A stretch of 64,000 nt of DNA from assembly GCF_900129135.1 (NCBI RefSeq), contig NZ_FQVI01000012.1, positions 61,345 through 125,344 on the forward strand, read 5' to 3'. The position numbers and the translations under genes are program-made. The notes under the pieces were generated by a model. That model was given only the letters and a program-made list of their open reading frames with translations. It did not search any database and was not told where the DNA came from. The DNA is from Lactonifactor longoviformis DSM 17459 (GTDB lineage Bacteria; Bacillota; Clostridia; Lachnospirales; Lachnospiraceae). Shown here in pieces: positions 3,153 through 64,000 of the stretch. Position 1 is the first letter of the stretch. Each line of letters opens with the position of its first letter.

Positions 3153-3986
3153 CTATGCAAACTTTTCATGTTCTATATACCCGTTTACTTCCTTTCTCAA
3201 CCGGATAAATGCCTCTGTATCCTTCAGTTCCAGCTCCCGGTGATAAGGAAGAAGGACCGGTACTTCTCTCTTAACCCTTCCCGGCCTGCTGGTGAGAACG
3301 TAGATTTTATTAGAGAGAAATACAGCCTCCTCAATGTCATGGGTTACAAAGAGCACCGTTGGCTTCTCCTCCTGCCAGATCTGCCGCATTAAAAGCTGCA
3401 TATCTGCCTTTGTCTGAGGGTCCAGGGCGGAAAACGGCTCATCCATGAGCAGCACCCGGGGGCTGTTGGCCAGCGCCCGGGCTATGGCCACACGCTGCTT
3501 CATGCCTCCGGACAGTTCCCCTGGATAACGATTGCGGAACTTTTCCAGTTTAATGGTTTTCAGATATTTATCCGCGATTTTTTCCTGCTCCCCCTCCGGC
3601 ATCTTTTTCAGCTTCAGCCCGAACTTAATATTCTCTTCCACAGTCATCCATGGGAATAAGGTGTAGGACTGGAACACCATCCCCCGATCCTCTCCGGGTC
3701 CTATAATATCATTATCCTCAATTACAATCCTGCCCCCGGAGGCTTCCTCAAGACCGGCGACCATCCGTAACAGTGTTGATTTTCCGCATCCCGAGGGACC
3801 CACGATGCAGACAAAATCATTTTCCAGTACATTGATTTCCACATCCTTCATGGCAGTTACGGCTCCCTTCTTGCCGGGATATTCTTTGTACAGCCCTTTC
3901 ACATACACGGTACTATTGGCCAGATTGGCCTCGATATGCCGCTCCCGGGGCGGAAGCTCTTTTTCTTTTTTCTTAAACCATCTCAT
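3153..3986 (-). CDS. ABC transporter ATPase, NrtD/SsuB/TauB type
   Basis: 277 residues. Walker A GPSGCGKSTLL (about 65-75), signature LSGGMKQRVAIARALA and Walker B LLMDEPFSALD are all intact, followed by the switch histidine in FVTHD. It powers uptake by the membrane protein encoded just upstream. Its start overlaps the permease stop by 4 bases (ATGA). The family includes nitrate, taurine, sulfonate and pyrimidine-precursor importers. The operon context suggests a nitrogen compound such as urea, guanidine or a derivative. Substrate is not readable from the sequence. Confidence 0.93.
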   Translation of the reverse strand: MRWFKKKEKELPPRERHIEANLANSTVYVKGLYKEYPGKKGAVTAMKDVEINVLENDFVCIVGPSGCGKSTLLRMVAGLEEASGGRIVIEDNDIIGPGEDRGMVFQSYTLFPWMTVEENIKFGLKLKKMPEGEQEKIADKYLKTIKLEKFRNRYPGELSGGMKQRVAIARALANSPRVLLMDEPFSALDPQTKADMQLLMRQIWQEEKPTVLFVTHDIEEAVFLSNKIYVLTSRPGRVKREVPVLLPYHRELELKDTEAFIRLRKEVNGYIEHEKFA

Positions 3987-4777
3987 ACCTGCCTACCTCC
4001 TTTTGCCCAGGGAAACAGTTTCTTATTCAGAAGTGCAAAGATGCGGTCTGTAACCAGTCCCAGAAGCCCAATCAGCAGAATTCCTCCAAAGATAGCATCT
4101 GTCTTAAGAAAACGCTGTGATTTCAGTATGGTATAGCCCAGGCCGGTATCCGCAGCTACCAGCTCCGCACTGACCAGATATGTCCAGGCCCATCCGATCA
4201 TCATACGCAGGGTTTCCATTAGTCTTGGCATCATAGCCGGGATAAGAATTCTGAAAACAGCCTGTTTGGTATCTGCTCCCAGAGTATACCCGGCATTAAT
4301 GAGATCCCCCGGAACGGATAAGGCGTCGTCCGCTACCATCAAAACCAGCTGGAAAAAGGTACCGATAAAGATTACCGCAACTTTAGCGCTCTCCCCTATC
4401 CCAATCCATACCATAATCAGGGGTACAAAAGCCGGAACCGGCATATAGCGGATGAATTCACAAAGCGGGCGTACGGCTGCCTCTGTCTTTGCAAAGGTTC
4501 CCACAAGAATACCCACGGGAATTCCAAGGACAACAGCCATCAGAAATCCCAGGCTGATGCGGATAATGCTGATCTTTGTATTCTCCCAGAGAGTGCCGTC
4601 GGAAACAGCAGTGAGATAGTACCTCAGCACACTGGATGGCCTGGGAAGGAAAATTTCCTTTACCATCCCCGCGCTGCTGACCGCAGACCAGACCAAAAAA
4701 ACTGTCAGAAAAGCCGCTGCTGCCAGAAGAAGGTATTTTTTCCTTGATATTGGTTTTCGGATTTTAACTTTAATCAT
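3983..4777 (-). CDS. ABC transporter permease, NrtB/SsuC type
   Basis: 264 residues with about six membrane segments, the first at residues 15-35. The family's cytoplasmic loop that contacts the ATPase is visible around residues 165-185 (GADTKQAVFRILIPAMMPRL). It forms the channel of the importer with the ATPase and the binding lipoprotein. Spacing to both partners is operonic: 12 bases after the binding-protein gene and a 4-base overlap with the ATPase gene. Confidence 0.92.
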   Translation of the reverse strand: MIKVKIRKPISRKKYLLLAAAAFLTVFLVWSAVSSAGMVKEIFLPRPSSVLRYYLTAVSDGTLWENTKISIIRISLGFLMAVVLGIPVGILVGTFAKTEAAVRPLCEFIRYMPVPAFVPLIMVWIGIGESAKVAVIFIGTFFQLVLMVADDALSVPGDLINAGYTLGADTKQAVFRILIPAMMPRLMETLRMMIGWAWTYLVSAELVAADTGLGYTILKSQRFLKTDAIFGGILLIGLLGLVTDRIFALLNKKLFPWAKGGRQV

Positions 4778-4789
4778 GGGTCCTCCCCC

Positions 4790-5794
4790 CTATTGAATCC
4801 ATGTGTCATCCAGAATAGAAGCAGTATCCTTTGGCATTTTATCAATCATCTTTGTATCCAGGAGAAACTCTGCCGATTTCTGCAGCGTATAGTTCAGATG
4901 GGTGTAATCGCTGCCTGGTGTAAAGGTTTCCTGGTTTTTCTGCCTGTCAAACAGCGTAACGCCGTCCAGCATGGCAATATAGTCCTCCTTCTTAAGTTCT
5001 GCCCCCTGGCAGACAGCATCGATAAATGCGTCATCCCTCTCATTGAGCTTCTCCACGCCCTCAAACCAGGAATCTACAATCTTTTGTATTTGCTCTGGGT
5101 CTCTGTCCAGAACCTCCTGCCGTACAGCCAGTGTGTCGGGAATGAGGCCCGGCTCTTCCTTCGTACTATATAAAAGACTGCCTCCTGCCTCTATAGCGGT
5201 GGAGAGCGTTGGTTCCCAGAGTACAGCTGCATCCACGCTTCCCGCTATAAAGGCAGGCCCTGCATCATTGATTGTCATATTCGTAAAATTCACATCGTCA
5301 ATGGTCATATTATTGTCTTCCAGGATCTTCAGCAGAAACATATGCTCCAGTGTTCCCACCTCGGTTGCCACCGTTTTTCCTTTCAGGTCTTGTACAGATG
5401 TAATTCCGTCCCGGACTACCAGGCCGTCGGCACCGTAAGAATTGTCATTGACCAACACGATTTTAAAGTCCACGCCCTCGTTCAGGGGTGCAATGGCGTC
5501 TGAACCGGCAATACAGATTCCATCCACCTGTCCTGAGTAGAACGCTGTCAGAGAATCACTGTACACAGGGAAGAATTCAAGTTTTACATCTGCCCCGTTT
5601 TTTTCAAAAATCCCTGTGCCCTTCACGCCGTACCAGCCATACCAGCCGGTCATAGGACTGATCCCCAGTACAAAAGGTTCTTCCTTATCTGTCCCGGCAG
5701 TCTCCTTTGTGCTGCCTGCGGCTTCCTGTCCGCATCCGGCAAGCATTCCGGCTGTAAGAACAGCCGTCAGTAATATTCCTGCTAATTTTTTCAT
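4790..5794 (-). CDS. ABC transporter substrate-binding lipoprotein, NrtA/SsuA/TauA type
   Basis: 334 residues with signal peptide and lipobox LAGC near residue 20. The mature part resembles NMT1/NrtA-like binding proteins (FVLGISPMTGWYGWYGVKGTGIFEKNG, shown here in pieces: ISPMTGWYGWYG, then GIFEKNG). Segments typical of two-lobed binding proteins follow, such as LKGKTVATEVGTLEHMFL. It delivers substrate to the permease. It lies 28 bases after the second PII-like gene, so transport and regulator genes share a transcript with the carboxylase/allophanate pathway. Confidence 0.92.
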   Translation of the reverse strand: MKKLAGILLTAVLTAGMLAGCGQEAAGSTKETAGTDKEEPFVLGISPMTGWYGWYGVKGTGIFEKNGADVKLEFFPVYSDSLTAFYSGQVDGICIAGSDAIAPLNEGVDFKIVLVNDNSYGADGLVVRDGITSVQDLKGKTVATEVGTLEHMFLLKILEDNNMTIDDVNFTNMTINDAGPAFIAGSVDAAVLWEPTLSTAIEAGGSLLYSTKEEPGLIPDTLAVRQEVLDRDPEQIQKIVDSWFEGVEKLNERDDAFIDAVCQGAELKKEDYIAMLDGVTLFDRQKNQETFTPGSDYTHLNYTLQKSAEFLLDTKMIDKMPKDTASILDDTWIQ

Positions 5795-5821: not shown

Positions 5822-6166
5822 TTACATAATCGCCTCTAATCCCTGTTCCCCGGTACGGATACGCATGGCATTGTCAACCGGCAGGACAAATATCTTCCCG
5901 TCCCCGGCATGGTTGGTTTTGTTGACCTCAACTACCGTATCGATCAAATGCTGCACGTCCTCATCCCTTACAAACATATCCACCATTTTTTTCGCGGCCA
6001 GACGGTGGCGGATCTCACCGTTCTCCTGGTCCAGTACATACTGAACCGGTTCCTTTCCCCGTCCGATGACTTCATGGACATTCAGGGAATGAAACCCAGC
6101 CCCATCCAGGGCTTCTTTTGTCTTAAAATACATTTTCGGCCGCAGTATAATCAATACTTCTTTCAT
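5822..6166 (-). CDS. PII-family regulator, NifI2-like
   Basis: 114 residues. The family signature GDGKIFVLPVDNAMRIRTGEQG is visible (positions about 89-110), as is the N-terminal strand MKEVLIILRPKMYFKTKEAL. The long T-loop segment and the ending GLEAIM resemble NifI2 rather than GlnB/GlnK: the uridylylation Tyr motif of GlnB is absent. NifI proteins sense 2-oxoglutarate and ATP/ADP and regulate nitrogenase post-translationally. No nif gene is present here, so the target is probably another protein of this operon (inference). It follows the NifI1-like gene by 14 bases, the same order as in nif clusters. Confidence 0.8.
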   Translation of the reverse strand: MKEVLIILRPKMYFKTKEALDGAGFHSLNVHEVIGRGKEPVQYVLDQENGEIRHRLAAKKMVDMFVRDEDVQHLIDTVVEVNKTNHAGDGKIFVLPVDNAMRIRTGEQGLEAIM

Positions 6167-6180
6167 AGCAGCTCTCCTTC

Positions 6181-6507
6181 CTACAGTTCATCTTTCCCGC
6201 TGCTGATAGTAACTGCCCGTTCCACACCGCTGACGAATATTTTTCCGTCCCCGTAGGTTCCGTTTTTTTCTGTCTTCGCAGCATCTGATATAATCCTGAC
6301 CACGCACTCCTCATCCGAATCCTTCACCACCAGCATCAGCATTTCCTTGGGTATCTCGTCATAGTAAGTATCGCCCACTTTGAGTCCCTTTTGTTTTCCT
6401 CTGCCCAGAACACTTATCTTGGTAGTGGCCGCAAATCCCTGTTCCATCAGTGCATCCAGAACATCTTCCGCTTTTTCCGGTCTCACAATTGCTTTTATCA
6501 TCTTCAT
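6181..6507 (-). CDS. PII-family regulator, NifI1-like
   Basis: 108 residues beginning MKMIKAIVRPEKAEDVLDAL, close to the NifI1 N-terminus. It has the LGRGKQKG segment and the YGDGKIFVSGVERAVTISSG signature near the end. In NifI pairs the two different subunits form a mixed oligomer that reads 2-oxoglutarate and adenylates. It lies 24 bases after the allophanate hydrolase gene. Likely role: tuning transport or guanidine/urea breakdown to nitrogen status. The assignment to NifI1 rather than another PII clade is by eye. Confidence 0.8.
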   Translation of the reverse strand: MKMIKAIVRPEKAEDVLDALMEQGFAATTKISVLGRGKQKGLKVGDTYYDEIPKEMLMLVVKDSDEECVVRIISDAAKTEKNGTYGDGKIFVSGVERAVTISSGKDEL

Positions 6508-6531: not shown

Positions 6532-7890
6532 CTATAACTGGCTCCCCGGCTCTGCTTTCAGAAAGGCATCCGCCAGCCCCAGAACCAGGCTTTCTGCGTC
6601 TGCTGTACCGAAAAACGTAATTCCAAAGGGCAGTTCCTCATCGTTTTTCTTCTGAGGGATCGCTGCCCCGCACAGTTCCAGCAGGTTGCAGTGGTTGGTA
6701 TACAGCCCCATCTGACTGTTTGTCATTACAGGATTATCTCTCACCTGCCTGCGGGTAAAGGTTCCTCCCGCAGTGGGAAGCGCCAAAACGGCATCCTTCA
6801 ATACTTTTTTTGCCTCTCGTCTGAGTTCCTGCAGGCGGTGTATCGCCCCAAAAGTCTTCGCAGCGGTATATTCTACCCTGTCCCCGTTTCTCAGAATCTC
6901 CTCTGTCACAGGAAGCATAACTCCCGGATGCTGCTCTGCAAAAATTCCCAGATCACACCACCGTTCTGCCACCCAGGGACCCTCGTATAAAAGCTTTGCT
7001 GCTTCTGCAAAGATGCCATAGTCCATATACTGTATTTCCGGCCCGAGCCCTTTCAGCCTTGCGGTCCCCTCTTCCCATTTTTCCCGGTATATCCGGGCAT
7101 AATCTCCGAAAAAGGTGGGTTCGTCTTTGGGAATGCATATCCTTTGGGGAAGCTTTGCTTTTGGCTCCGGGTACTCCCGGGACCAGCAGCAGTCTTCGTC
7201 ATAGCCCCTGGCCAGACGGTTTATCTCAGCCGCATCCTCCAAATTGTTGGCAAATACGGTCACACAGTCCAGGCTGGCGCAGGCCGGGACTACCCCTCTA
7301 ACGGACCAGGCCCCCAGAGGGGGTTTATATCCCACAAGCCCATTTAAGGCTGCCGGGACTCTTCCGGATCCTGCCGTATCTGTCCCCAGGGAAAAGGCCG
7401 CCATGCCAAGAGCCGCCGCCACCGCTGAGCCGGAGCTGGAACCTCCGCTGATAAGCTTTGGGTTGAGGGCATTTTTCACCTCCCCATAGGGACTCCTGGT
7501 TCCCACCAGCCCTGTGGCAAACTGATCCAGATTAGTCTTTCCCACCGGAAACGCTCCGGCATCTATGAGCTTTTGTACTACCGCAGCATTCTCTTTTGGT
7601 ATATAGGCGTATTCCGGGCAGGCGGCAGTCGTGGGCACACCCGCCAGGTCAATGTTGTCCTTTACCGCAAAAGGGATTCCCCACAGGGGGAGTGAATTTC
7701 TTTCTTTGGGAAGGCGGTCTGTGTATGCCTTCATTTTCTCCCGGGAGGGCTTATCAATCCATATATGGTAGGATGCATATTGTTCCGCCCTTCGCGCGAT
7801 TTCCTCTGCCAGTTCACAGGGGGTGAGTTCTCCTGCTGCATAGCTGTCCCTCAGCCATGCAAAGGTAAGTCTGTTGGGAAACCTTTTCAT
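6532..7890 (-). CDS. atzF: Allophanate hydrolase, amidase domain only
   Basis: 452 residues from the ATG at 7888-7890, with GGAG 6-7 bases upstream. A longer frame to 7956 overlaps the carboxylase gene and is not supported. It is an amidase-signature enzyme: catalytic Lys in FAVKDNID, the Ser-rich GGSSSGSAVAAA, and the Ser nucleophile region GTDTAGSGRVPAA. It hydrolyses allophanate, the carboxylated urea product, to ammonia and CO2. Full-length AtzF or DUR1,2 hydrolases carry an extra C-terminal domain of roughly 140 residues that handles N-carboxycarbamate. This protein stops at the end of the amidase domain. Confidence 0.9.
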   Translation of the reverse strand: MKRFPNRLTFAWLRDSYAAGELTPCELAEEIARRAEQYASYHIWIDKPSREKMKAYTDRLPKERNSLPLWGIPFAVKDNIDLAGVPTTAACPEYAYIPKENAAVVQKLIDAGAFPVGKTNLDQFATGLVGTRSPYGEVKNALNPKLISGGSSSGSAVAAALGMAAFSLGTDTAGSGRVPAALNGLVGYKPPLGAWSVRGVVPACASLDCVTVFANNLEDAAEINRLARGYDEDCCWSREYPEPKAKLPQRICIPKDEPTFFGDYARIYREKWEEGTARLKGLGPEIQYMDYGIFAEAAKLLYEGPWVAERWCDLGIFAEQHPGVMLPVTEEILRNGDRVEYTAAKTFGAIHRLQELRREAKKVLKDAVLALPTAGGTFTRRQVRDNPVMTNSQMGLYTNHCNLLELCGAAIPQKKNDEELPFGITFFGTADAESLVLGLADAFLKAEPGSQL

Positions 7891-7915
7891 GTCAATCTCC
7901 TTTCTTCCCCGCCTG

Positions 7916-10900
7916 TCACTGTCTGATCCGTATACAGGCTGCCATCTGGCCCGCATTCACCTGCTCCCCGGGGGTCAGGTAAATCCGCTCAATGAGTCCG
8001 GCATGCTCTGCCTCCACAGGGAACTCCATTTTCATACTCTCCAGAACAATCAGGGTTTCCCCTTCTTTTACTTCCTGTCCTTCCTCTACCAATACCTTCC
8101 AGACGCTGCCCGGAATGCTGGTCCTGGCAGCCTCGCAGCCCCCGGGTATCTCTTCCTCGGCAATTGCCGGGGCGTCCTGCATCTGAGAGTCGAATTCATC
8201 CAGTCCTTCCCTCTTCCACATCTGCCGTTCTTCCTCAAATGCGGCTTCCTGCCTGGTTTTAAACCGGGAAATGGACTCCCTGTTCTCCTCCAGAAACTTT
8301 TGATATTCTCCCAGATGAAAGGTGGTTTCTTCTATTTTTATGGGGAATTTCCCTCTCAGGAAATCCTCCCTGTCTTTCAATATTTCTTCCGCACTTACCG
8401 GATAGAATTTTATCTGGTCAAAGAAGTCCAGAAGCCACGGTTTTCCTGGTTTAAACTGTTCGGTCTCGCAAAGAGAATTCCACATCTGGATGGTCCTGCC
8501 CACAAACTGATAACCTCCCGGGCCCTCCATCCCATAGACACACAGGTAGGCTCCTCCGATCCCAACCGCATTTTCAGGCGTCCAGGGCCGGGCCGGGTTA
8601 TACTTGGTGGTAACCAGACGGTGCCGGGGATCAACCGGTGTGGCGACAGGAGCCCCCAGATACACATCTCCCAGTCCCAGCACCATATAATTGGCACCAA
8701 ATACAATACGCTTTACTTCCTCCAGGCTATCAAGCCCGTTCACCCGCCTGATAAATTCCGGGTTGCTGGGACACCAGGGAGCATTCGGCCGCACCGTCTG
8801 CTGATACCTTTGTGCAGCAAGCTGTGTCTGGGGATCATCCCAGGACAGAGGCAGATGGACAATCCTGGAGGGAACCGTGATGTCCCACAATTCAGGAAGC
8901 CGGGTATTGGCGCCCACCACAGCTTCAGCCATCTCCTCTGCACTGATTTTATCTGCATCAAAGTGTACCTGCAGAGAGCGGATGCCCGGCGTAAGGTCTA
9001 TGATGGGAAGCTTTGCCTTCTGAAGTTCCTGCATTAGAATATGTACCCGGAAGCGAAGTTCTATCTTCAGCTCCATCTCACCGTATTCCACAAGAATATT
9101 TTCTTCTCCGTCCAGTCTGACCACCATTCTGACTTGGTCTGCCTCTGTTTCCGCCAGAACCGCGTAAGAAGGATTGAGATTCTCATGCTCCGGCACAGGA
9201 AGTCCTTTGTAATCCTGCTTCAGATTTTCCTCCTGAACCCTCCGGATGTCTTCCGCCTGTTTCAGACTCATCAGGCGAAAATGTACTTTGTCTCCCGGAT
9301 GCAGCTGCCCCAGCTTCCACCTTTCTCCCCTGGCGGTGGTAACCGGGCATACAAAGCCTCCCAGACTGGGGCCGTCCGGACCCAGCAGGATGGACTGATC
9401 TCCTGTCAAATCCAAAGTTCCCACCGCATAAGCATTGTCATGGATGTTCGACGGATGAAGCCCTGCTTCTCCTCCGTCCTCCCTGACCCACTCAGGGACA
9501 GGGCCGTTCAGCCGGATCCCCGTTCTGGCACTGTTAAAATTCACCTCATACTCTGAATTCACCAGGGTATGCAGATATTCTTCCCTCAGATATTCTCCGG
9601 TAGGCTGCGGACCTGGAATCACCCCGAGTACCCAGCGGTTGGTGAGTCTCGGCCTGGATTTCTCAGGAAATGACTCTATAGAGTCAATCAGGCAGTGTTT
9701 CTGCAGTCTCAGAACATCCCCAGCCCTTAAAACCCTGCCGTTATGCCCTCCGAATTTTCCGTCAATAAAGGTTGCACTGCTGTCCATAACTTTGGGCATA
9801 TCCAGCCCTCCCGCCACCAGCAGATAGGTGCGCATCCCCTTTTTGCATTCCTTAAATCTCAGCACCTGGAGGGGGGCTGCATGGATTACCTGGTACATGC
9901 CCACAGTCTCCCCGTCCAGAGTCGCGCGCATATCTGCCCCTGTAATGCAGAAACTTACACTGGTCCGGAAACGGAACCTGCCGCCGCGCAGAGTCATCTC
10001 CAGTCCCGGGGCATCCTCCGGGTTTCCCAGAAGGCTGTTTCCTATCCGGAAACTATAATCGTCCATGGGACCGCAGGGGGGGACTCCCACAAACCAGTAA
10101 CCGGTTCTTCCCGGATAATCCTGGACAGTGGTCTGTACACCCCCGTCCAGGACCTCCAGAGCTGCCTCCTGGGGAGAAAAGCGCTTCAGCATCCCTGTGG
10201 AGAGAAGTCCGTTTCTGTAATCCTCTGTCTGCAGAAGGGCCTCCAGGTACTGCAGATTGGTTGTCACACCATAGATCCTGGATTCTCCCAAAACTTTCTG
10301 CATTTTTTCCACTGCATCTGCCCTGTCTTTTCCGTGTACGATGAGCTTAGCCAGCATGGGATCGTAGAGGGCAGTAATCTCCGCTCCCTTCTGAATCCAG
10401 GTTTCAACCCTGGCTTCAGGGGCAAAAGAAACTTCATCAATCTTTCCTGTACCAGGTCTGAAGTCATTCAGACAGTCCTCTGCGTACACCCGTACTTCTA
10501 TGGAATGTCCCTCACTGCAGCCTGTCAGGGTGTTCAAATCCCGAAGTTCCCCTGCCGCCTCCTTTACCATCCACTCTACCAGATCGATCCCATACACTTC
10601 CTCTGTGATGCCATGCTCTACCTGCAGCCTTGTGTTCACCTCCAGGAAATAAAAGGATTCTGTCTCCTCCTCATACAGAAATTCTACCGTTCCGGCACTC
10701 CGGTAGCCGACACTTTTAGCCAGGCGCCGGGCAGCCTCGTGCATCTGCCGGCGGACTTCGCCGCTGAGGTTCGGCGCGGGGCTTTCCTCCACCACCTTTT
10801 GGTTTCTCCTCTGTACCGAACAGTCACGCTCTCCCAGTGCCGCTGCTTCCCCATACTCGTTGCCGAAGATCTGTACCTCTACGTGCCTGGAACGGGGGAT

Positions 10901-11503
10901 ATATTTTTCCAGAAATACACCGTCATTTTTGAAGTTTGCCCCTGCCAGGTGACGGACACTTTCATATGCCATCTCCAATTCCTCCCGGGAATACAGAATC
11001 CGCATGCCGATTCCTCCGCCTCCCGCAGTACTTTTCAGGATTACAGGATAACCGATCCTCTCTGCCGCTCTCACTGCTTCCCGTATTCCGCGCAGCAGTC
11101 CTGTGCCCGGAAGGAGAGGCACCTGTGCCGTCTCAGCCAGCTCTCTGGCAGAATGCTTTAGTCCGAATCGCTCGATCTGCTCCGGTGCAGGACCGATAAA
11201 TGTAATACCCTTTGCCCGGCACTGTCTGGCGAATTCCGTATTTTCACTGAGGAATCCATACCCCGGATGGATGGCTTCTGCGCCGGTCCGCAGGGCAGCC
11301 TCCAGAATCTTCTCCGTATCCAGATAAGTTTCTTTCGGTGAACCATCACCCAGGAAAACCGTCTCATCTGCGTTCTTTGTATGAAGGCTGTCCCGGTCTG
11401 CGGCTGCGTAAACTGCCACGCTGGCAATGCCCATCTTTTTCAGGGTTCTCTCAATGCGGACTGCAATTGCCCCGCGGTTTGCTATTAATATCTTCTGAAA
11501 CAT
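7916..11503 (-). CDS. uca: Biotin-dependent urea/guanidine carboxylase
   Basis: 1195 residues, the usual length of bacterial urea carboxylase. Order: biotin carboxylase domain (1-450; KILIANRGAIAVRI, ATP-grasp GGGGIGMRI), carboxyltransferase part of KipA/KipI-like lobes (about 470-1090), and a C-terminal biotin carrier domain with the biotinylated Lys in LESMKMEF. It carboxylates urea, or guanidine in the guanidine-carboxylase subgroup, using ATP and bicarbonate. The two upstream genes are the partners known from the guanidine route, so guanidine is the favoured substrate. Sequence reading alone does not settle urea versus guanidine. AAGGAG precedes the start. Confidence 0.93.
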   Translation of the reverse strand: MFQKILIANRGAIAVRIERTLKKMGIASVAVYAAADRDSLHTKNADETVFLGDGSPKETYLDTEKILEAALRTGAEAIHPGYGFLSENTEFARQCRAKGITFIGPAPEQIERFGLKHSARELAETAQVPLLPGTGLLRGIREAVRAAERIGYPVILKSTAGGGGIGMRILYSREELEMAYESVRHLAGANFKNDGVFLEKYIPRSRHVEVQIFGNEYGEAAALGERDCSVQRRNQKVVEESPAPNLSGEVRRQMHEAARRLAKSVGYRSAGTVEFLYEEETESFYFLEVNTRLQVEHGITEEVYGIDLVEWMVKEAAGELRDLNTLTGCSEGHSIEVRVYAEDCLNDFRPGTGKIDEVSFAPEARVETWIQKGAEITALYDPMLAKLIVHGKDRADAVEKMQKVLGESRIYGVTTNLQYLEALLQTEDYRNGLLSTGMLKRFSPQEAALEVLDGGVQTTVQDYPGRTGYWFVGVPPCGPMDDYSFRIGNSLLGNPEDAPGLEMTLRGGRFRFRTSVSFCITGADMRATLDGETVGMYQVIHAAPLQVLRFKECKKGMRTYLLVAGGLDMPKVMDSSATFIDGKFGGHNGRVLRAGDVLRLQKHCLIDSIESFPEKSRPRLTNRWVLGVIPGPQPTGEYLREEYLHTLVNSEYEVNFNSARTGIRLNGPVPEWVREDGGEAGLHPSNIHDNAYAVGTLDLTGDQSILLGPDGPSLGGFVCPVTTARGERWKLGQLHPGDKVHFRLMSLKQAEDIRRVQEENLKQDYKGLPVPEHENLNPSYAVLAETEADQVRMVVRLDGEENILVEYGEMELKIELRFRVHILMQELQKAKLPIIDLTPGIRSLQVHFDADKISAEEMAEAVVGANTRLPELWDITVPSRIVHLPLSWDDPQTQLAAQRYQQTVRPNAPWCPSNPEFIRRVNGLDSLEEVKRIVFGANYMVLGLGDVYLGAPVATPVDPRHRLVTTKYNPARPWTPENAVGIGGAYLCVYGMEGPGGYQFVGRTIQMWNSLCETEQFKPGKPWLLDFFDQIKFYPVSAEEILKDREDFLRGKFPIKIEETTFHLGEYQKFLEENRESISRFKTRQEAAFEEERQMWKREGLDEFDSQMQDAPAIAEEEIPGGCEAARTSIPGSVWKVLVEEGQEVKEGETLIVLESMKMEFPVEAEHAGLIERIYLTPGEQVNAGQMAACIRIRQ

Positions 11504-11519
11504 GATGATTCACTCCTTC

Positions 11520-12176
11520 CTATTGTCCGGCGTCCCAGATCAGCAGCCTTACGGGGGTTGGATGGTAGGCATTGCAGGGATTATTGAGCTGAGGGCAGTT
11601 GCTGATCAGCACCATAGTGTGTTCCAGAGCCTTCATCTCCACATATTTCCCCGGGGCCGACACTCCGTCGTCAAACTTCAGTCCCCCTTCTCTTGTTACC
11701 GGCACATTCATAAAAAAGTTAATATTGGGGGCCAAATCCCGCTTTCTGATGCCGTTAGTATCTTCGGAAAGCTGGAGCATAAAGCTGTCCCTGCAATTGT
11801 GCATATCTATCTTTTCCCTGGCATATCTGACCGTGTTGCTTTGGGCGGAACAGGCGCCCCCCAGAGTGTCATGCCTTCCGGTAAGGTCTCCGGTAATCTC
11901 CAGAAGGGGTTTTCCTGACTCCGTCCTCAGAATGCTTCCTGTGGTCAGATAAATATTTTTCTGTGCCACAATAGTGGCAATTGCTCCGTAGTGGTCCTCC
12001 GGATTTGTCATATCATAAAAGGTGGTATCCACAGCCTGGTTCCCTTCCAAATCCTGAATTCGGAAGTACTGCCCCGGAAGCAGTTCATGCATCCATCCTT
12101 TTCCGGCCTCCAGAGTTTCATCCCATACTGCATCCTCTGTCTTTAAACTGCTTTCTTTTCTGATAAAACCATACAT
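11520..12176 (-). CDS. Urea carboxylase-associated protein 2 (carboxyguanidine deiminase subunit)
   Basis: 218 residues of the DUF1989/UAAP2 family. Conserved pieces are DLEGNQAVDTTFYD, LTTGSILRTESG, TGRHDTLGGACS, NCRDSF and the Asn-rich NINFFMNVPV. Published work on guanidine users (Schneider and co-workers, 2020) assigns UAAP1 and UAAP2 together as carboxyguanidine deiminase (CgdAB), which turns carboxyguanidine into allophanate plus ammonia. It lies 16 bases before the carboxylase gene and 46 bases after UAAP1. AGGAGG precedes the start. I leave the A/B letter open. Confidence 0.88.
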   Translation of the reverse strand: MYGFIRKESSLKTEDAVWDETLEAGKGWMHELLPGQYFRIQDLEGNQAVDTTFYDMTNPEDHYGAIATIVAQKNIYLTTGSILRTESGKPLLEITGDLTGRHDTLGGACSAQSNTVRYAREKIDMHNCRDSFMLQLSEDTNGIRKRDLAPNINFFMNVPVTREGGLKFDDGVSAPGKYVEMKALEHTMVLISNCPQLNNPCNAYHPTPVRLLIWDAGQ

Positions 12177-12222: not shown

Positions 12223-12939
12223 TCAGTGCAGCAGATTCAGATAATCCCAGGTATTTTCATACGCTCTAAAGTTCTCTGGCCTGTGAGTAACACATTTATC
12301 TGTAAGTTCCGTCTGCGGGGCCCGGTAAACTTCCATAATTACCGGCACCGCGGGATATTCCCCGGAAGGATTCAGAGGATTGGGGGTATTGGATACTATC
12401 AGTATTACATCCATCTCTGTCCTCAGAGTTACCGATGCCCCTTCGGTGCAGTGACCCTTCTCATAATGCATGCTTCCGTCCTCCTCCACATAAACCTTGG
12501 AAAACAGGTTAACGCATGGAACCAGATCTCTGGCACTCATGTTGTTTCTTACCAGCTCAATCCTGAAATTCTCCTCCCCGCAGCGAAGCCATTCGTTCTG
12601 TTTTTCCTGGTACGTGGTTTTTCCATACTTCTCGTCTGTCATAGCTCTTGTAGTATATCCAGTTATGGTATCGTGCCATCCCAGACTATCCTCCACAATG
12701 CCGGCCAGCACTCTCCCATTGTCGCTCATCAGCACGTTGCCCCTGGTCAGACGGGAGGTATACTGTGCCTTCAGGGTATCCGGCATGTTATATCTCTCCG
12801 AGGTATCATACATGTTATACAGCAGCAGGGATACGTTGGCATCTTCCCCAAGAGCTTTAAAACGGATATATTTTCCCCTGCCTATATTTCCCGACCACTT
12901 TTCACCAGGTTTTAATTGTTTGCTCCAAATTTTTTTCAT
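12223..12939 (-). CDS. Urea carboxylase-associated protein 1 (carboxyguanidine deiminase subunit)
   Basis: 238 residues from the ATG at 12937-12939, preceded by AAAGGAGG; the longer frame to 12963 reads through that site. UAAP1 family markers are visible: GANVSLLL-like DANVSLLLYN, SERYNMPDTLKAQYT, LMSDNGRVLAGIVEDSLGWHDT, split here for length, and the late NPLNPSGEYP. It is the first gene of the operon and pairs with UAAP2 as the probable carboxyguanidine deiminase. A promoter and a leader hairpin lie directly upstream. Confidence 0.88.
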   Translation of the reverse strand: MKKIWSKQLKPGEKWSGNIGRGKYIRFKALGEDANVSLLLYNMYDTSERYNMPDTLKAQYTSRLTRGNVLMSDNGRVLAGIVEDSLGWHDTITGYTTRAMTDEKYGKTTYQEKQNEWLRCGEENFRIELVRNNMSARDLVPCVNLFSKVYVEEDGSMHYEKGHCTEGASVTLRTEMDVILIVSNTPNPLNPSGEYPAVPVIMEVYRAPQTELTDKCVTHRPENFRAYENTWDYLNLLH

Positions 12940-12962
12940 TCTGCTTTCCTCCTTTTTCCACA

Positions 12963-13151: not shown

Positions 13152-13910
13152 TTACATTTTATCCAGGGCAGCCAGAAGCTGTGTTCTTGTATTCACTTCC
13201 GTTTTCAGGAATACATTATACACATGCTTTTTTACCGTGGATTCGCTGATGGACAGCTTTTCACTGATTGCCGCATTTGAACAGCCTTTTACAATACACC
13301 GAACCACCTCTTTTTCTCTCCGGGAAAATCCATATACTCCTGCAGCCCGTTCCAGGCTTTTCCCTGAACCGGAACCCGAAGCCTCCCCCAGATAATGCAC
13401 ATGATTGGCCAGATGATCTTTCATAATCTCCAGTATGTACAAATCCTTATCTGAAAAATCCCCCAGTTCCCTGCTGCGGAACAGGTTTGCAATTCCCAGA
13501 AGTCTGCCCTCCCGCCTGAGAACAATTCCCAGACCATATGGGATATTGTTTGGACTGAGAAATTCCCGGTAGAACTCTGTTTTCTTCCGCATAGTTTCAT
13601 CCATAATATCGGTGTCCCGGTAGGTCACCGTCGCGTCTGCCAGCTCAAATACATATTTTAGATAATCTTTTTCATAATATTGGTTCACATATACCTCAAA
13701 AGCCTTGGGCGCCATCTCCAGGAAGGAAGAATCCGAGGTATTTATCTCTCCTTCACTGTCATAGATCAGAAAATATCCCTGGGAATAGGGAATCAGCATC
13801 CGGAAGATCCTCAGTACCTTCTCTGTCAGCCTGGGAAGATCCTTAATCTCGTAGAGTTCCATCAAAACCCGACTGATGGTGTTCCATTCCGTTTCCTTTA
13901 ATACAGACAT
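13152..13910 (-). CDS. LuxR-type transcriptional regulator with GAF-like sensory domain
   Basis: 252 residues from the ATG at 13908-13910 (MSVLKETEW), with GAGG upstream. The frame open to 14021 would run through a strong hairpin. Residues 1-180 look like a GAF-like ligand-sensing domain. Residues 190-250 form a LuxR/GerE helix-turn-helix (FSRREKEVVRCIVKG, then SISESTVKKHVYNVF). There is no receiver domain, so it is not a standard response regulator. It lies directly upstream of the guanidine/urea operon in the same direction and is the best candidate for its activator (inference from position). Confidence 0.85.
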   Translation of the reverse strand: MSVLKETEWNTISRVLMELYEIKDLPRLTEKVLRIFRMLIPYSQGYFLIYDSEGEINTSDSSFLEMAPKAFEVYVNQYYEKDYLKYVFELADATVTYRDTDIMDETMRKKTEFYREFLSPNNIPYGLGIVLRREGRLLGIANLFRSRELGDFSDKDLYILEIMKDHLANHVHYLGEASGSGSGKSLERAAGVYGFSRREKEVVRCIVKGCSNAAISEKLSISESTVKKHVYNVFLKTEVNTRTQLLAALDKM

Positions 13911-13973
13911 ATATCCATCCCTCTTTCCGCTATATATTTGCAGTGCATTCCCGGCGGATGCCTGAAACATAAT

Positions 13974-14003
13974 AAGGGAGCACAGCCGAAGCTGCACTCC
14001 CTT
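13974..14003. promoter_or_regulatory. Strong UUCG hairpin in the LuxR-type gene leader
   Basis: A 13-bp stem (13974-13986 with 13991-14003, two G-U pairs on the minus-strand RNA) closed by a TTCG tetraloop. It lies between a promoter at about 14031-14059 and the regulator start at 13910. Only a weak T-rich tract (TTATTATGTTT) follows, so it may be a leaky terminator, an attenuator or an RNA-stabilising element. Confidence 0.55.
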
Positions 14004-14030
14004 GTGCACTTTGATATTCAAATCGGGATT

Positions 14031-63664: not shown

Positions 63665-64000
63665 GTGCGCCCGGCGGCGCACGTTTCTAACCGGTGAAAG
63701 TCCGGAATCCGCCCGGTGGTGGGAAGGATATAGCCGAAGGCAAGGGTGTCCATTGTGAGGTGGAATCCGAAGGAAGCCGGATATGGGGAACATACGAACC
63801 CATGGGCAAATCTCTGGTCTGACGAACAGAAACCACATAAGAGGCTATGCATGAGGATAAGGCTGCATGACAAGTCGAAGTCCAATAACTACCCGGAATC
63901 ATGTATGGTAGATGTGGCAGATGGATGGAGAGAAAGAAACGTGTGGTACCCGGGGAGGTCTGCACGACACGCCCTGAAAGGGGTAACCATTATGGAGAGA
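63665..64000 (+). mobile_element. Group II intron, 5' part, partial
   Basis: Begins GTGCGCCCGG, fitting the GUGYG 5' end, with the structured segments of a widespread group II intron family of gut bacteria: CCGGTGAAAGTCCGG, AAGGGTGTCC, GGAATCCGAAGGAAGCCGG, GGTCTGACGAACAGAAACC and TACCCGGGGAGGTCTG. The 3' end and the maturase gene lie outside the window. An ATG at 63992 after GAAAGGGG could open the maturase, but only three codons are visible. Insertion directly after a terminator T tract resembles class C introns; the class is not decided from this part. Confidence 0.88.

What the first reader, a model, noticed from the sequence alone, without database searches (positions are those of the whole stretch)
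5822..6507. NifI1/NifI2-like PII pair inside a guanidine/urea operon
Two different PII proteins, in nifI1-nifI2 order, sit between allophanate hydrolase and the transporter genes, with gaps of 14-28 bases. NifI pairs are known as nitrogenase regulators. No nif gene is present. This suggests a 2-oxoglutarate-gated control of a carboxylase, hydrolase or transporter, which I have not seen described.
Basis: partly seen in the sequence, partly recalled or inferred. Interest (0 to 1): 0.72.

Follow-up and report, generated by a model that had tools for sequence, protein, structure and literature searches.

The report
Nitrogenase-type sensor pair rewired to transporter
Two nitrogen-sensing proteins of a kind known as nitrogenase brakes sit, in a bacterium in whose genome no nitrogenase core genes were found, beside the genes of a predicted guanidine importer, where they likely shut off uptake when nitrogen is plentiful.

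Summary
Two PII genes lie in one tight operon between allophanate hydrolase and an ABC importer. By phylogeny they are NifI1 and NifI2, not GlnB/GlnK, and no NifD/K was found in the genome. The pair recurs at 14 guanidine-carboxylase loci (window included) in Bacillota and Treponema. With pairs from ureohydrolase/urease, aldehyde/alcohol-dehydrogenase and amidohydrolase loci these form one group apart from 70 nif pairs (SH-aLRT 99). Three features point at the transporter rather than the carboxylase or hydrolase. (1) An ABC-transporter gene lies directly 3' of NifI2 in 17 of 18 non-nif pairs, while the enzymes change. (2) The NifI2 T-loop is 19-26 residues in 18 of 18 and 27-37 in 70 of 70 nif pairs. 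(3) The partner ATPase carries an IEANLANS-type motif 45 residues before Walker A in 16 of 16 non-nif-group ATPases, in 0 of 50 other ABC ATPases of the same loci, and in 0 of 26 homologues away from any NifI1. This association may have a single origin. Most likely NifI1,2 is a 2-oxoglutarate/ATP-gated brake on the importer's ATPase; binding, sign and substrate are untested.

The parts
6181..6507 (-). NifI1-type PII (108 aa)
   Evidence: Pfam P-II 79.0 bits; best PDB match 9p1x chain H, 94.3 bits; in the NifI1 clade 100/98
5822..6166 (-). NifI2-type PII (114 aa)
   Evidence: Pfam P-II 73.5 bits; best PDB match 9p1x chain G, 74.7 bits; in the NifI2 clade 100/99; model mean pLDDT 85.7, matches PII folds
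5993..6055 (-). short T-loop of NifI2 (21 residues between GRG and Lys59)
   Evidence: 18 of 18 non-nif pairs 19-26, 70 of 70 nif pairs 27-37, no overlap
4790..5794 (-). substrate-binding protein, SsuA/NMT1 family
   Evidence: TIGR01728 167.1 bits, over its cut-off of 163.5; urea-type TIGR03427 118.9, below cut-off
3983..4777 (-). ABC permease, BPD_transp_1
   Evidence: Pfam PF00528 87.4 bits
3153..3986 (-). ABC ATPase, NrtCD/TauB/SaoA-like, the proposed target
   Evidence: PF00005 115.4 bits; SaoA, taurine and NtrCD models match below their cut-offs
3912..3935 (-). IEANLANS motif (residues 18-25 of the ATPase), proposed docking site
   Evidence: Found 45 residues before Walker A in 16 pair-linked ATPases and in 0 of the 50 other ABC ATPases of the same loci; 0 of 26 homologues away from NifI1
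6532..7890 (-). allophanate hydrolase, amidase part (listed ORF begins at 7956; ATG at 7890 is the likelier start)
   Evidence: PRK08186 528 bits, over cut-off; TIGR02713 491, below its cut-off of 511
7916..11503 (-). biotin carboxylase of the urea/guanidine type, with Asp698 where yeast urea amidolyase has Asn1330
   Evidence: TIGR02712 1704 bits; alignment with 5i8i; Asp in 55 of 56 aligned sequences, window included
11520..12176 (-). UAAP2 (carboxyguanidine deiminase subunit; this role and subunit label recalled)
   Evidence: TIGR03424 292 bits, over cut-off
12223..12942 (-). UAAP1 (carboxyguanidine deiminase subunit; this role and subunit label recalled)
   Evidence: TIGR03425 287.9 bits, over cut-off
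13152..14021 (-). LuxR-type regulator upstream of the operon
   Evidence: PF00196 56.6 bits; a homologue is found near many of the clostridial and Treponema uca loci

Best explanation
The two genes encode a NifI1-NifI2 pair that lies apart from nitrogenase and likely works as a 2-oxoglutarate- and ATP-gated brake on the neighbouring ABC importer, a predicted guanidine importer. Shown by sequence: NifI1/NifI2 membership, linkage to ABC genes rather than to one enzyme set, a shorter NifI2 T-loop than in nif pairs, and a distinctive N-terminal motif on the partner ATPase. Inferred: when nitrogen is plentiful (low 2-oxoglutarate) the NifI1,2 complex would bind the ATPase through the NifI2 T-loop and the IEANLANS-type motif and stop ATP hydrolysis and uptake; high 2-oxoglutarate with MgATP would release it, as described for NifI1,2 on NifDK. 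That would spare the ATP that the carboxylase and importer spend when ammonia is already available.
For: (a) NifI1 and NifI2 clades 100/98 and 100/99, with 9p1x chains H and G inside; 9p1x also holds NifD. (b) In 392 genomes of the order, 4 (the window's own included) have the carboxylase and all 4 have the pair in the same gene neighbourhood. (c) 17 of 18 non-nif pairs have an ABC gene directly 3' of NifI2, with enzyme sets carboxylase/UAAP/AtzF, ureohydrolase/urease, aminotransferase/Fe-ADH/TauE and ALDH/Fe-ADH. (d) Where the locus is split (L055, L109, L131, L219) the pair stays with ABC genes. (e) T-loop 19-26 against 27-37, no overlap. (f) ATPase motif: 16 pair-linked ATPases have it, 0 of 50 other ABC ATPases of the same loci do, nor do 26 of 26 homologues that lie away from any NifI1. 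In L218 the ATPase directly 3' of NifI2 has it and the second ATPase of the locus does not. (g) 2-OG/ATP residues kept: NifI1 Q39 16/17, K54 17/17, GDGK 17/17; NifI2 R9 16/17, K59 17/17 (residue roles from passages of PMC8395244). (h) 6 of 14 uca-pair genomes have no PF00148 match. (i) Precedent: cyanobacterial PII interacts with NrtC, NrtD and UrtE (PMC6603209, passages). (j) In seven other uca loci a GlnK-like PII follows AtzF; in five of them an APC permease follows it directly, and in two an APC permease lies beside a second PII.
Against: No interaction or activity was measured. The motif pattern was written from the 16 sequences themselves, and these ATPases form one clade (SH-aLRT 97), so motif and pair may share one origin and are not 16 independent events. 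One non-nif pair (L132) lies beside an amidohydrolase, not a NitT/TauT gene. The L144 pair has an ATPase without the motif. The Gln39 place of NifI2 is not conserved, and NifI1 (of nif and non-nif pairs alike) has Thr/Ser where GlnK has the ATP-binding Arg101/Arg103, so ligand binding may differ from GlnK. Six of the 14 uca loci have AtzF as the next gene 5' of the pair, so an effect on the hydrolase is not excluded. The Bacilli and Thiobacillus loci fetched have the pathway without the pair.
Confidence: 0.62

Rival explanations
1. The pair regulates an enzyme of the pathway (carboxylase or allophanate hydrolase), by analogy with PII control of acetyl-CoA carboxylase (recalled).
For: AtzF is the next gene 5' of NifI1 in the window and in five more uca loci, and the carboxylase uses ATP.
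Against: The pair also occurs with no carboxylase or AtzF in the stretch held (L179, L218, L144, L132) and sits with ABC genes when the locus is split.
Confidence: 0.13
2. The pair is a leftover or hitchhiker from a lost nif cluster, or still acts in trans on nitrogenase or general nitrogen targets.
For: In the PII tree the non-nif NifI1s nest among nif NifI1s; 4 of 14 uca-pair genomes have strong NifD/K matches.
Against: Open frames and most ligand residues are kept across 17 pairs and the NifI2 T-loop differs consistently; 6 of 14 genomes have no PF00148 match. The four with strong NifD/K (G026, G754, G784, G790) have further NifI1 genes beside those.
Confidence: 0.12
3. The pair works on the transporter with the opposite sign, as an activator at high 2-oxoglutarate, or senses mainly ATP/ADP.
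For: The sign cannot be read from sequence, and the NifI2 Gln39 place is variable, which could weaken 2-OG sensing.
Against: NifI1,2 on nitrogenase (PMC9765008) and PII on Nrt (PMC6603209) are described as inhibitors, relieved by 2-OG or proposed not to bind in the 2-OG-MgATP state.
Confidence: 0.13

Closest known systems
NifI1,2 regulation of nitrogenase (methanogens; nif clusters of Bacillota and Spirochaetota)
   Same: Same two protein clades, same gene order and close spacing, most 2-OG/ATP residues kept
   Different: No NifD/K target found in this genome; NifI2 T-loop 21 residues instead of 27-37; neighbours are ABC importer genes
Cyanobacterial PII control of NrtABCD and UrtABCDE (PMC6603209, abstract and passages seen)
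   Same: A PII protein acting on an ATPase of a nitrogen-compound ABC importer; the window's ATPase matches the NtrCD model (220 bits, below its cut-off of 292)
   Different: There one PII works on several transporters; here a dedicated NifI-type pair is encoded in the transporter operon
GlnK-AmtB
   Same: PII gene beside the transporter it would gate; this genome has a GlnK gene next to an AmtB-like gene elsewhere (L015; AmtB named from the sequence, not searched)
   Different: Different PII clade, two PII genes instead of one, ABC importer instead of Amt
Guanidine carboxylase pathway with ABC importer (PMC12186494, passages seen)
   Same: Same enzyme set, Asp in the specificity position, ABC importer
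   Different: No guanidine riboswitch in the window at Rfam cut-offs; PII pair added; that review's main text has 0 occurrences of 'PII'

Membership tests
NifI1/NifI2 (PII subfamilies) | Clusters with NifI1 / NifI2 rather than GlnB/GlnK | tested here: met
   Clades 100/98 and 100/99, each including a 9p1x chain; 40 GlnB/K and other PII rows outside
NifI1/NifI2 (PII subfamilies) | Adjacent pair in the order nifI1-nifI2 | tested here: met
   14-base gap; the same order in the relatives
NifI1/NifI2 (PII subfamilies) | Lies in a nitrogenase operon | tested here: not met
   None among the operon's proteins; PF00148 0 matches in the draft genome
NifI1/NifI2 (PII subfamilies) | Long NifI2 T-loop as in nif pairs | tested here: not met
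   21 residues against 27-37 in 70 nif pairs and 31 in 11 further ones
NifI1/NifI2 (PII subfamilies) | 2-OG/ATP-binding residues | tested here: met
   Window NifI1 has Q39, K54, GDGK; NifI2 has R9, K59, GDGK, R102, R104 but Glu at the Gln39 place; NifI1 lacks the Arg101/Arg103 equivalents, as nif NifI1 does
NifI1/NifI2 (PII subfamilies) | Binds and inhibits NifDK, reversed by 2-OG | not testable with these tools
   Needs protein work; no NifDK found in this genome
GlnB/GlnK | Clusters with GlnB/GlnK | tested here: not met
GlnB/GlnK | Linked to amtB or glutamine synthetase | tested here: not met
   Neighbours are AtzF and ABC genes; the genome's GlnK-AmtB-like pair lies on C35
Guanidine carboxylase operon | Carboxylase with Asp in the specificity position, UAAP1/2, AtzF | tested here: met
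   the Asp/Asn rule from a passage of PMC12186494
Guanidine carboxylase operon | Guanidine riboswitch | tested here: not met
   Only a group II intron domain reached a gathering score in the window
PII-gated ABC importer | Physical PII-ATPase interaction | not testable with these tools
   Proposed as the decisive experiment

The most novel reading that the evidence does not exclude
NifI1-NifI2 plus an ABC importer whose ATPase carries the IEANLANS-type N-terminal motif is a portable, self-contained 2-oxoglutarate-gated uptake module, split off from the nitrogenase switch and re-used across guanidine carboxylase, ureohydrolase/urease and other nitrogen-scavenging operons of anaerobes; the NifI2 T-loop is the part retuned for the new target.
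Probability: 0.5. Interest if true: 0.82.

Novelty: new variant of a known kind. Interest (0 to 1): 0.7.

Why it matters
NifI1/NifI2 are known as nitrogenase regulators; [quoted passage not shown] A retained non-nif group, in several genomes without a NifD/K match, suggests that the pair is a general sensor that can be re-aimed, and the NifI2 T-loop length suggests where target choice is written. It also gives a directly testable candidate docking motif on an ABC ATPase. PMC6603209 (passage) states that how PII inhibits the Nrt ABC transporter still awaits a structure-functional explanation.

Tried and rejected
GlnB/GlnK identity: rejected. Chance adjacency: rejected, because the four carboxylase genomes of the 392-genome order sample all have the pair in the same neighbourhood. 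Nitrogenase elsewhere in the genome: PF00148 has no match; the NifH-like gene lies in an ABC operon and was not pursued. Guanidine riboswitch control: nothing at Rfam gathering scores. Carboxylase or AtzF as the constant partner: rejected as the main reading, since the pair occurs without them in the held stretches of L179, L218, L144 and L132. Independent origin of the L144 pair: the quick tree puts it among nif pairs, but an AU test does not reject all 18 non-nif pairs as one group (p 0.578, the held tree even 2.4 log units better), so I do not claim two origins of the short T-loop. Structure search: the NifI2 model matches PII proteins in general; 9p1x was not among the 50 rows shown, and I never saw its title, so its nature is read from its chains. 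Docking of the pair on the ATPase could not be run. My first check that the 26 motif-less ATPases have no PII within the roughly 3 kb held is weak, because it also misses the pair of the window's own ATPase (L221) and of L248; I rest that point on genome positions instead.

Rows dropped: the tally of the Asp position covers 56 sequences; my filter asked for a long ORF with the literal string GPMD, and 27 of the 83 sources given (window, L051-L131, L178) gave none and were not examined. L054 was dropped from the pair tree because its NifI2 is cut off at the locus end; the same pair is in the tree through L219. Lone NifI1-like hits and L191 (partner outside my gap limit of 250 bases) were not in the pair tree. 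The first motif count (16 of 49) used a Walker A pattern too narrow for some ATPases; the wider one gave 16 of 66.

Papers: ten searches, 11, 12, 30, 31, 32, 69, 75, 77, 78, 89 (listings and abstract starts; in some only the top 10-30 of the papers found were listed). None of the titles and abstract starts listed by the searches that paired NifI or PII with guanidine, urea carboxylase or ABC transporters reports this pair; (NifI + PII + guanidine) found 0 papers. The library holds open-licence papers only, so this is not proof that nothing is in print.

Full report
What is there. The window lies in a 4.84 Mb draft genome. An operon on the minus strand runs UAAP1, UAAP2, carboxylase, allophanate hydrolase, PII-A (6507-6181), PII-B (6166-5822), SBP, permease, ATPase. 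The carboxylase scores 1704 bits with TIGR02712. Its Asp698 aligns with Asn1330 of the yeast urea amidolyase structure 5i8i, and 55 of 56 aligned sequences, the window's included, have Asp there. A passage of PMC12186494 gives Asp for guanidine and Asn for urea carboxylases. So guanidine is the likelier substrate; this is inference. No guanidine riboswitch reached the Rfam cut-off in the window.

What the PII proteins are. Both have 9p1x as best PDB sequence match, chain H for PII-A (94.3 bits) and chain G for PII-B (74.7 bits). The same entry holds a nitrogenase alpha chain, so it is a nitrogenase entry with two PII proteins; I did not see its title. In a 96-row tree, 28 NifI1 and 28 NifI2 rows each form a clade (100/98, 100/99), with the window's two inside and 40 GlnB/K or other PII rows outside. 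The genome has four other PF00543 matches, one of them GlnK beside an AmtB-like gene. It has no NifD/K match and one NifH-like gene inside an ABC operon on another contig.

How often it recurs. In 392 genomes of the order (the window's own included), 4 have the carboxylase at E <= 1e-150, and all 4 have a NifI1-NifI2 pair in the same neighbourhood. Among 78 named loci found with the carboxylase, 9 have the pair within the stretch held (L051, L053, L054, L055, L084, L106, L107, L108, L109); short flanks make this a lower bound. In L054 the pair heads its own transporter unit some 8 kb from the enzyme genes. In seven more (L052, L056, L074, L083, L104, L115, L121) a GlnK-like PII follows AtzF. 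In five of these an APC permease directly follows that PII; in L083 and L121 a permease lies beside a second PII on the other side of the enzyme genes. The Bacilli, Paenibacillus and Thiobacillus loci fetched have the pathway without the pair; several Thiobacillus loci have a GlnB/K-type PII about 9 kb away. A NifI1 profile over 398 genomes of the phylum hit 64 genomes at 69 places. I fetched all but the window's own place (68). Two of these are below 86 bits and are not NifI1. Of the remaining 66, 61 lie with NifH-like and/or NifD-like genes, 2 are non-nif pairs (L178, L179) and 3 are lone (L192, L194, L203). In 198 Spirochaetota genomes, 13 have a hit: 11 nif, 1 uca (G788, the genome of L084), 1 lone gene between urtE and urease (L261).

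Where the non-nif pairs sit. Eighteen are known here: 14 with the carboxylase; L179, with perm-ATPase-SBP, a ureohydrolase (agmatinase model, 182 bits), a PucR-type regulator and urease genes; L144, with a class III aminotransferase, Fe-ADH, taurine-like SBP (218 bits, below its cut-off of 304) and TauE; L218, with aldehyde and alcohol dehydrogenases and an ATPase directly 3' of NifI2; L132, with an amidohydrolase. In 17 of 18 the gene directly 3' of NifI2 on the same strand is an ABC-transporter gene; L132 is the exception. In L055, L109 and L219 the pair heads an SBP-perm-ATPase unit on its own strand, and in L131 it heads perm-ATPase-AtzF, divergent from SBP and the other enzymes. The gene 5' of the pair varies: AtzF in 6 of the 14 uca loci, the UAAP2 type or another gene in the rest. 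G754 carries two non-nif pairs, one with the carboxylase pathway and one with ureohydrolase/urease, both with the same kind of transporter, and two nif pairs besides.

Tree of pairs. With 88 pairs (216 columns) the 14 uca pairs and those of L179, L218 and L132 form one side of a branch (SH-aLRT 99). The L144 pair falls among the 70 nif pairs, but holding all 18 non-nif pairs together is not rejected (p-AU 0.578). The tree is unrooted, several non-nif rows have long branches, and the number of departures from nitrogenase is open.

What differs. NifI1 is hardly changed: the stretch between GRG and the Lys58 equivalent is 16 residues in all 17 group members and in the median nif pair. In NifI2 it is 19-26 residues in all 18 non-nif pairs and 27-37 in all 70 nif pairs; 11 further Spirochaetota nif pairs all have 31. 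Ligand residues are mostly kept, but the Gln39 place of NifI2 is variable (residue roles from PMC8395244), and NifI1 of both kinds lacks the Arg101/Arg103 equivalents.

The partner. ATPases beside the pair carry an N-terminal motif, [IL][ES][AV]xx[AGS][NS][ST]. I derived this pattern from these same sequences, so the 16 of 16 is by construction and the test lies in the others. Among 66 distinct ABC ATPases in the fetched loci of at least 5 kb the motif occurs in 16, all beside non-nif pairs and all 45 residues before Walker A, and in none of the other 50 (a narrower filter gave 16 of 49). In a separate set of 29 best homologues from 388 genomes the 3 with a pair have it and the other 26, in 25 genomes, do not. 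Of those 25 genomes 16 have no NifI1 match; the other 9 have NifI1 on another contig or at least 197 kb away. The L144 ATPase, beside a non-nif pair, lacks the motif. The 16 are one clade (SH-aLRT 97), so this may be a single shared inheritance.

Nitrogenase in the hosts. Of 14 genomes with a uca pair, 6 have no PF00148 match (G000, G211, G785, G788, G789, G791), 2 have only weak ones (G161, G787), 2 have matches of up to 243 and 273 bits (G786, G792), and 4 have strong ones (G026, G754, G784, G790). Several are MAGs, so absence is provisional.

Mechanism. Shown: identity, linkage, T-loop and motif. Inferred: NifI1,2 binds the ATPase when 2-OG is low and is released by 2-OG and MgATP. The model joins two reported systems: NifI1,2 blocks the NifH site on NifDK and is reversed by 2-OG, magnesium and ATP (PMC9765008, passages), and cyanobacterial PII inhibits nitrate uptake through NrtC/NrtD and interacts with UrtE (PMC6603209, passages). 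The PII genes beside APC permeases in other uca loci suggest that gating of uptake is the shared need.

Verdict. A real, recurrent arrangement that stretches the known role of NifI. It is best called a new variant of PII control: NifI-type proteins by descent, likely working like PII on ABC importers, with the target untested.

Noticed in passing
L261:6364-6684 (-) (unnamed Spirochaetota genome G896): A lone NifI1-like PII (127 bits) lies between urtE and the urease genes, another link of a NifI-type protein with a nitrogen-compound ABC importer.
   Followed up: partly
L194:7222-7545 (-) and L192:7248-7601 (+): Lone NifI1-like PIIs before a livH-type branched-chain amino-acid ABC operon and before phoU-pstS.
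   Followed up: partly
L052, L056, L074, L104, L115 (also L083, L121): A GlnK-like PII follows allophanate hydrolase in carboxylase loci that have an APC permease instead of the ABC importer; these seven PIIs form their own clade, 100/100.
   Followed up: partly
G000:C23:38728-39516 (L011:9690-10535): A lone NifH-like gene in an ABC-transporter operon without NifD/K, beside a 317-aa ORF with no Pfam match.
   Followed up: no
G000:C29:300940-301257 (L012:6917-7258): Another PII of this genome sits directly before genes that look like a polyamine-type ABC transporter (named from the sequence, not searched).
   Followed up: no
window 6532-7956: The allophanate hydrolase is 474 aa while many relatives are 560-590 aa, so it seems to lack their C-terminal part; L056, L083, L108 and L115 are similarly short.
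   Followed up: no
window 63749-63945: Group II intron domain RF02001, 138 bits, at the window's end.
   Followed up: no
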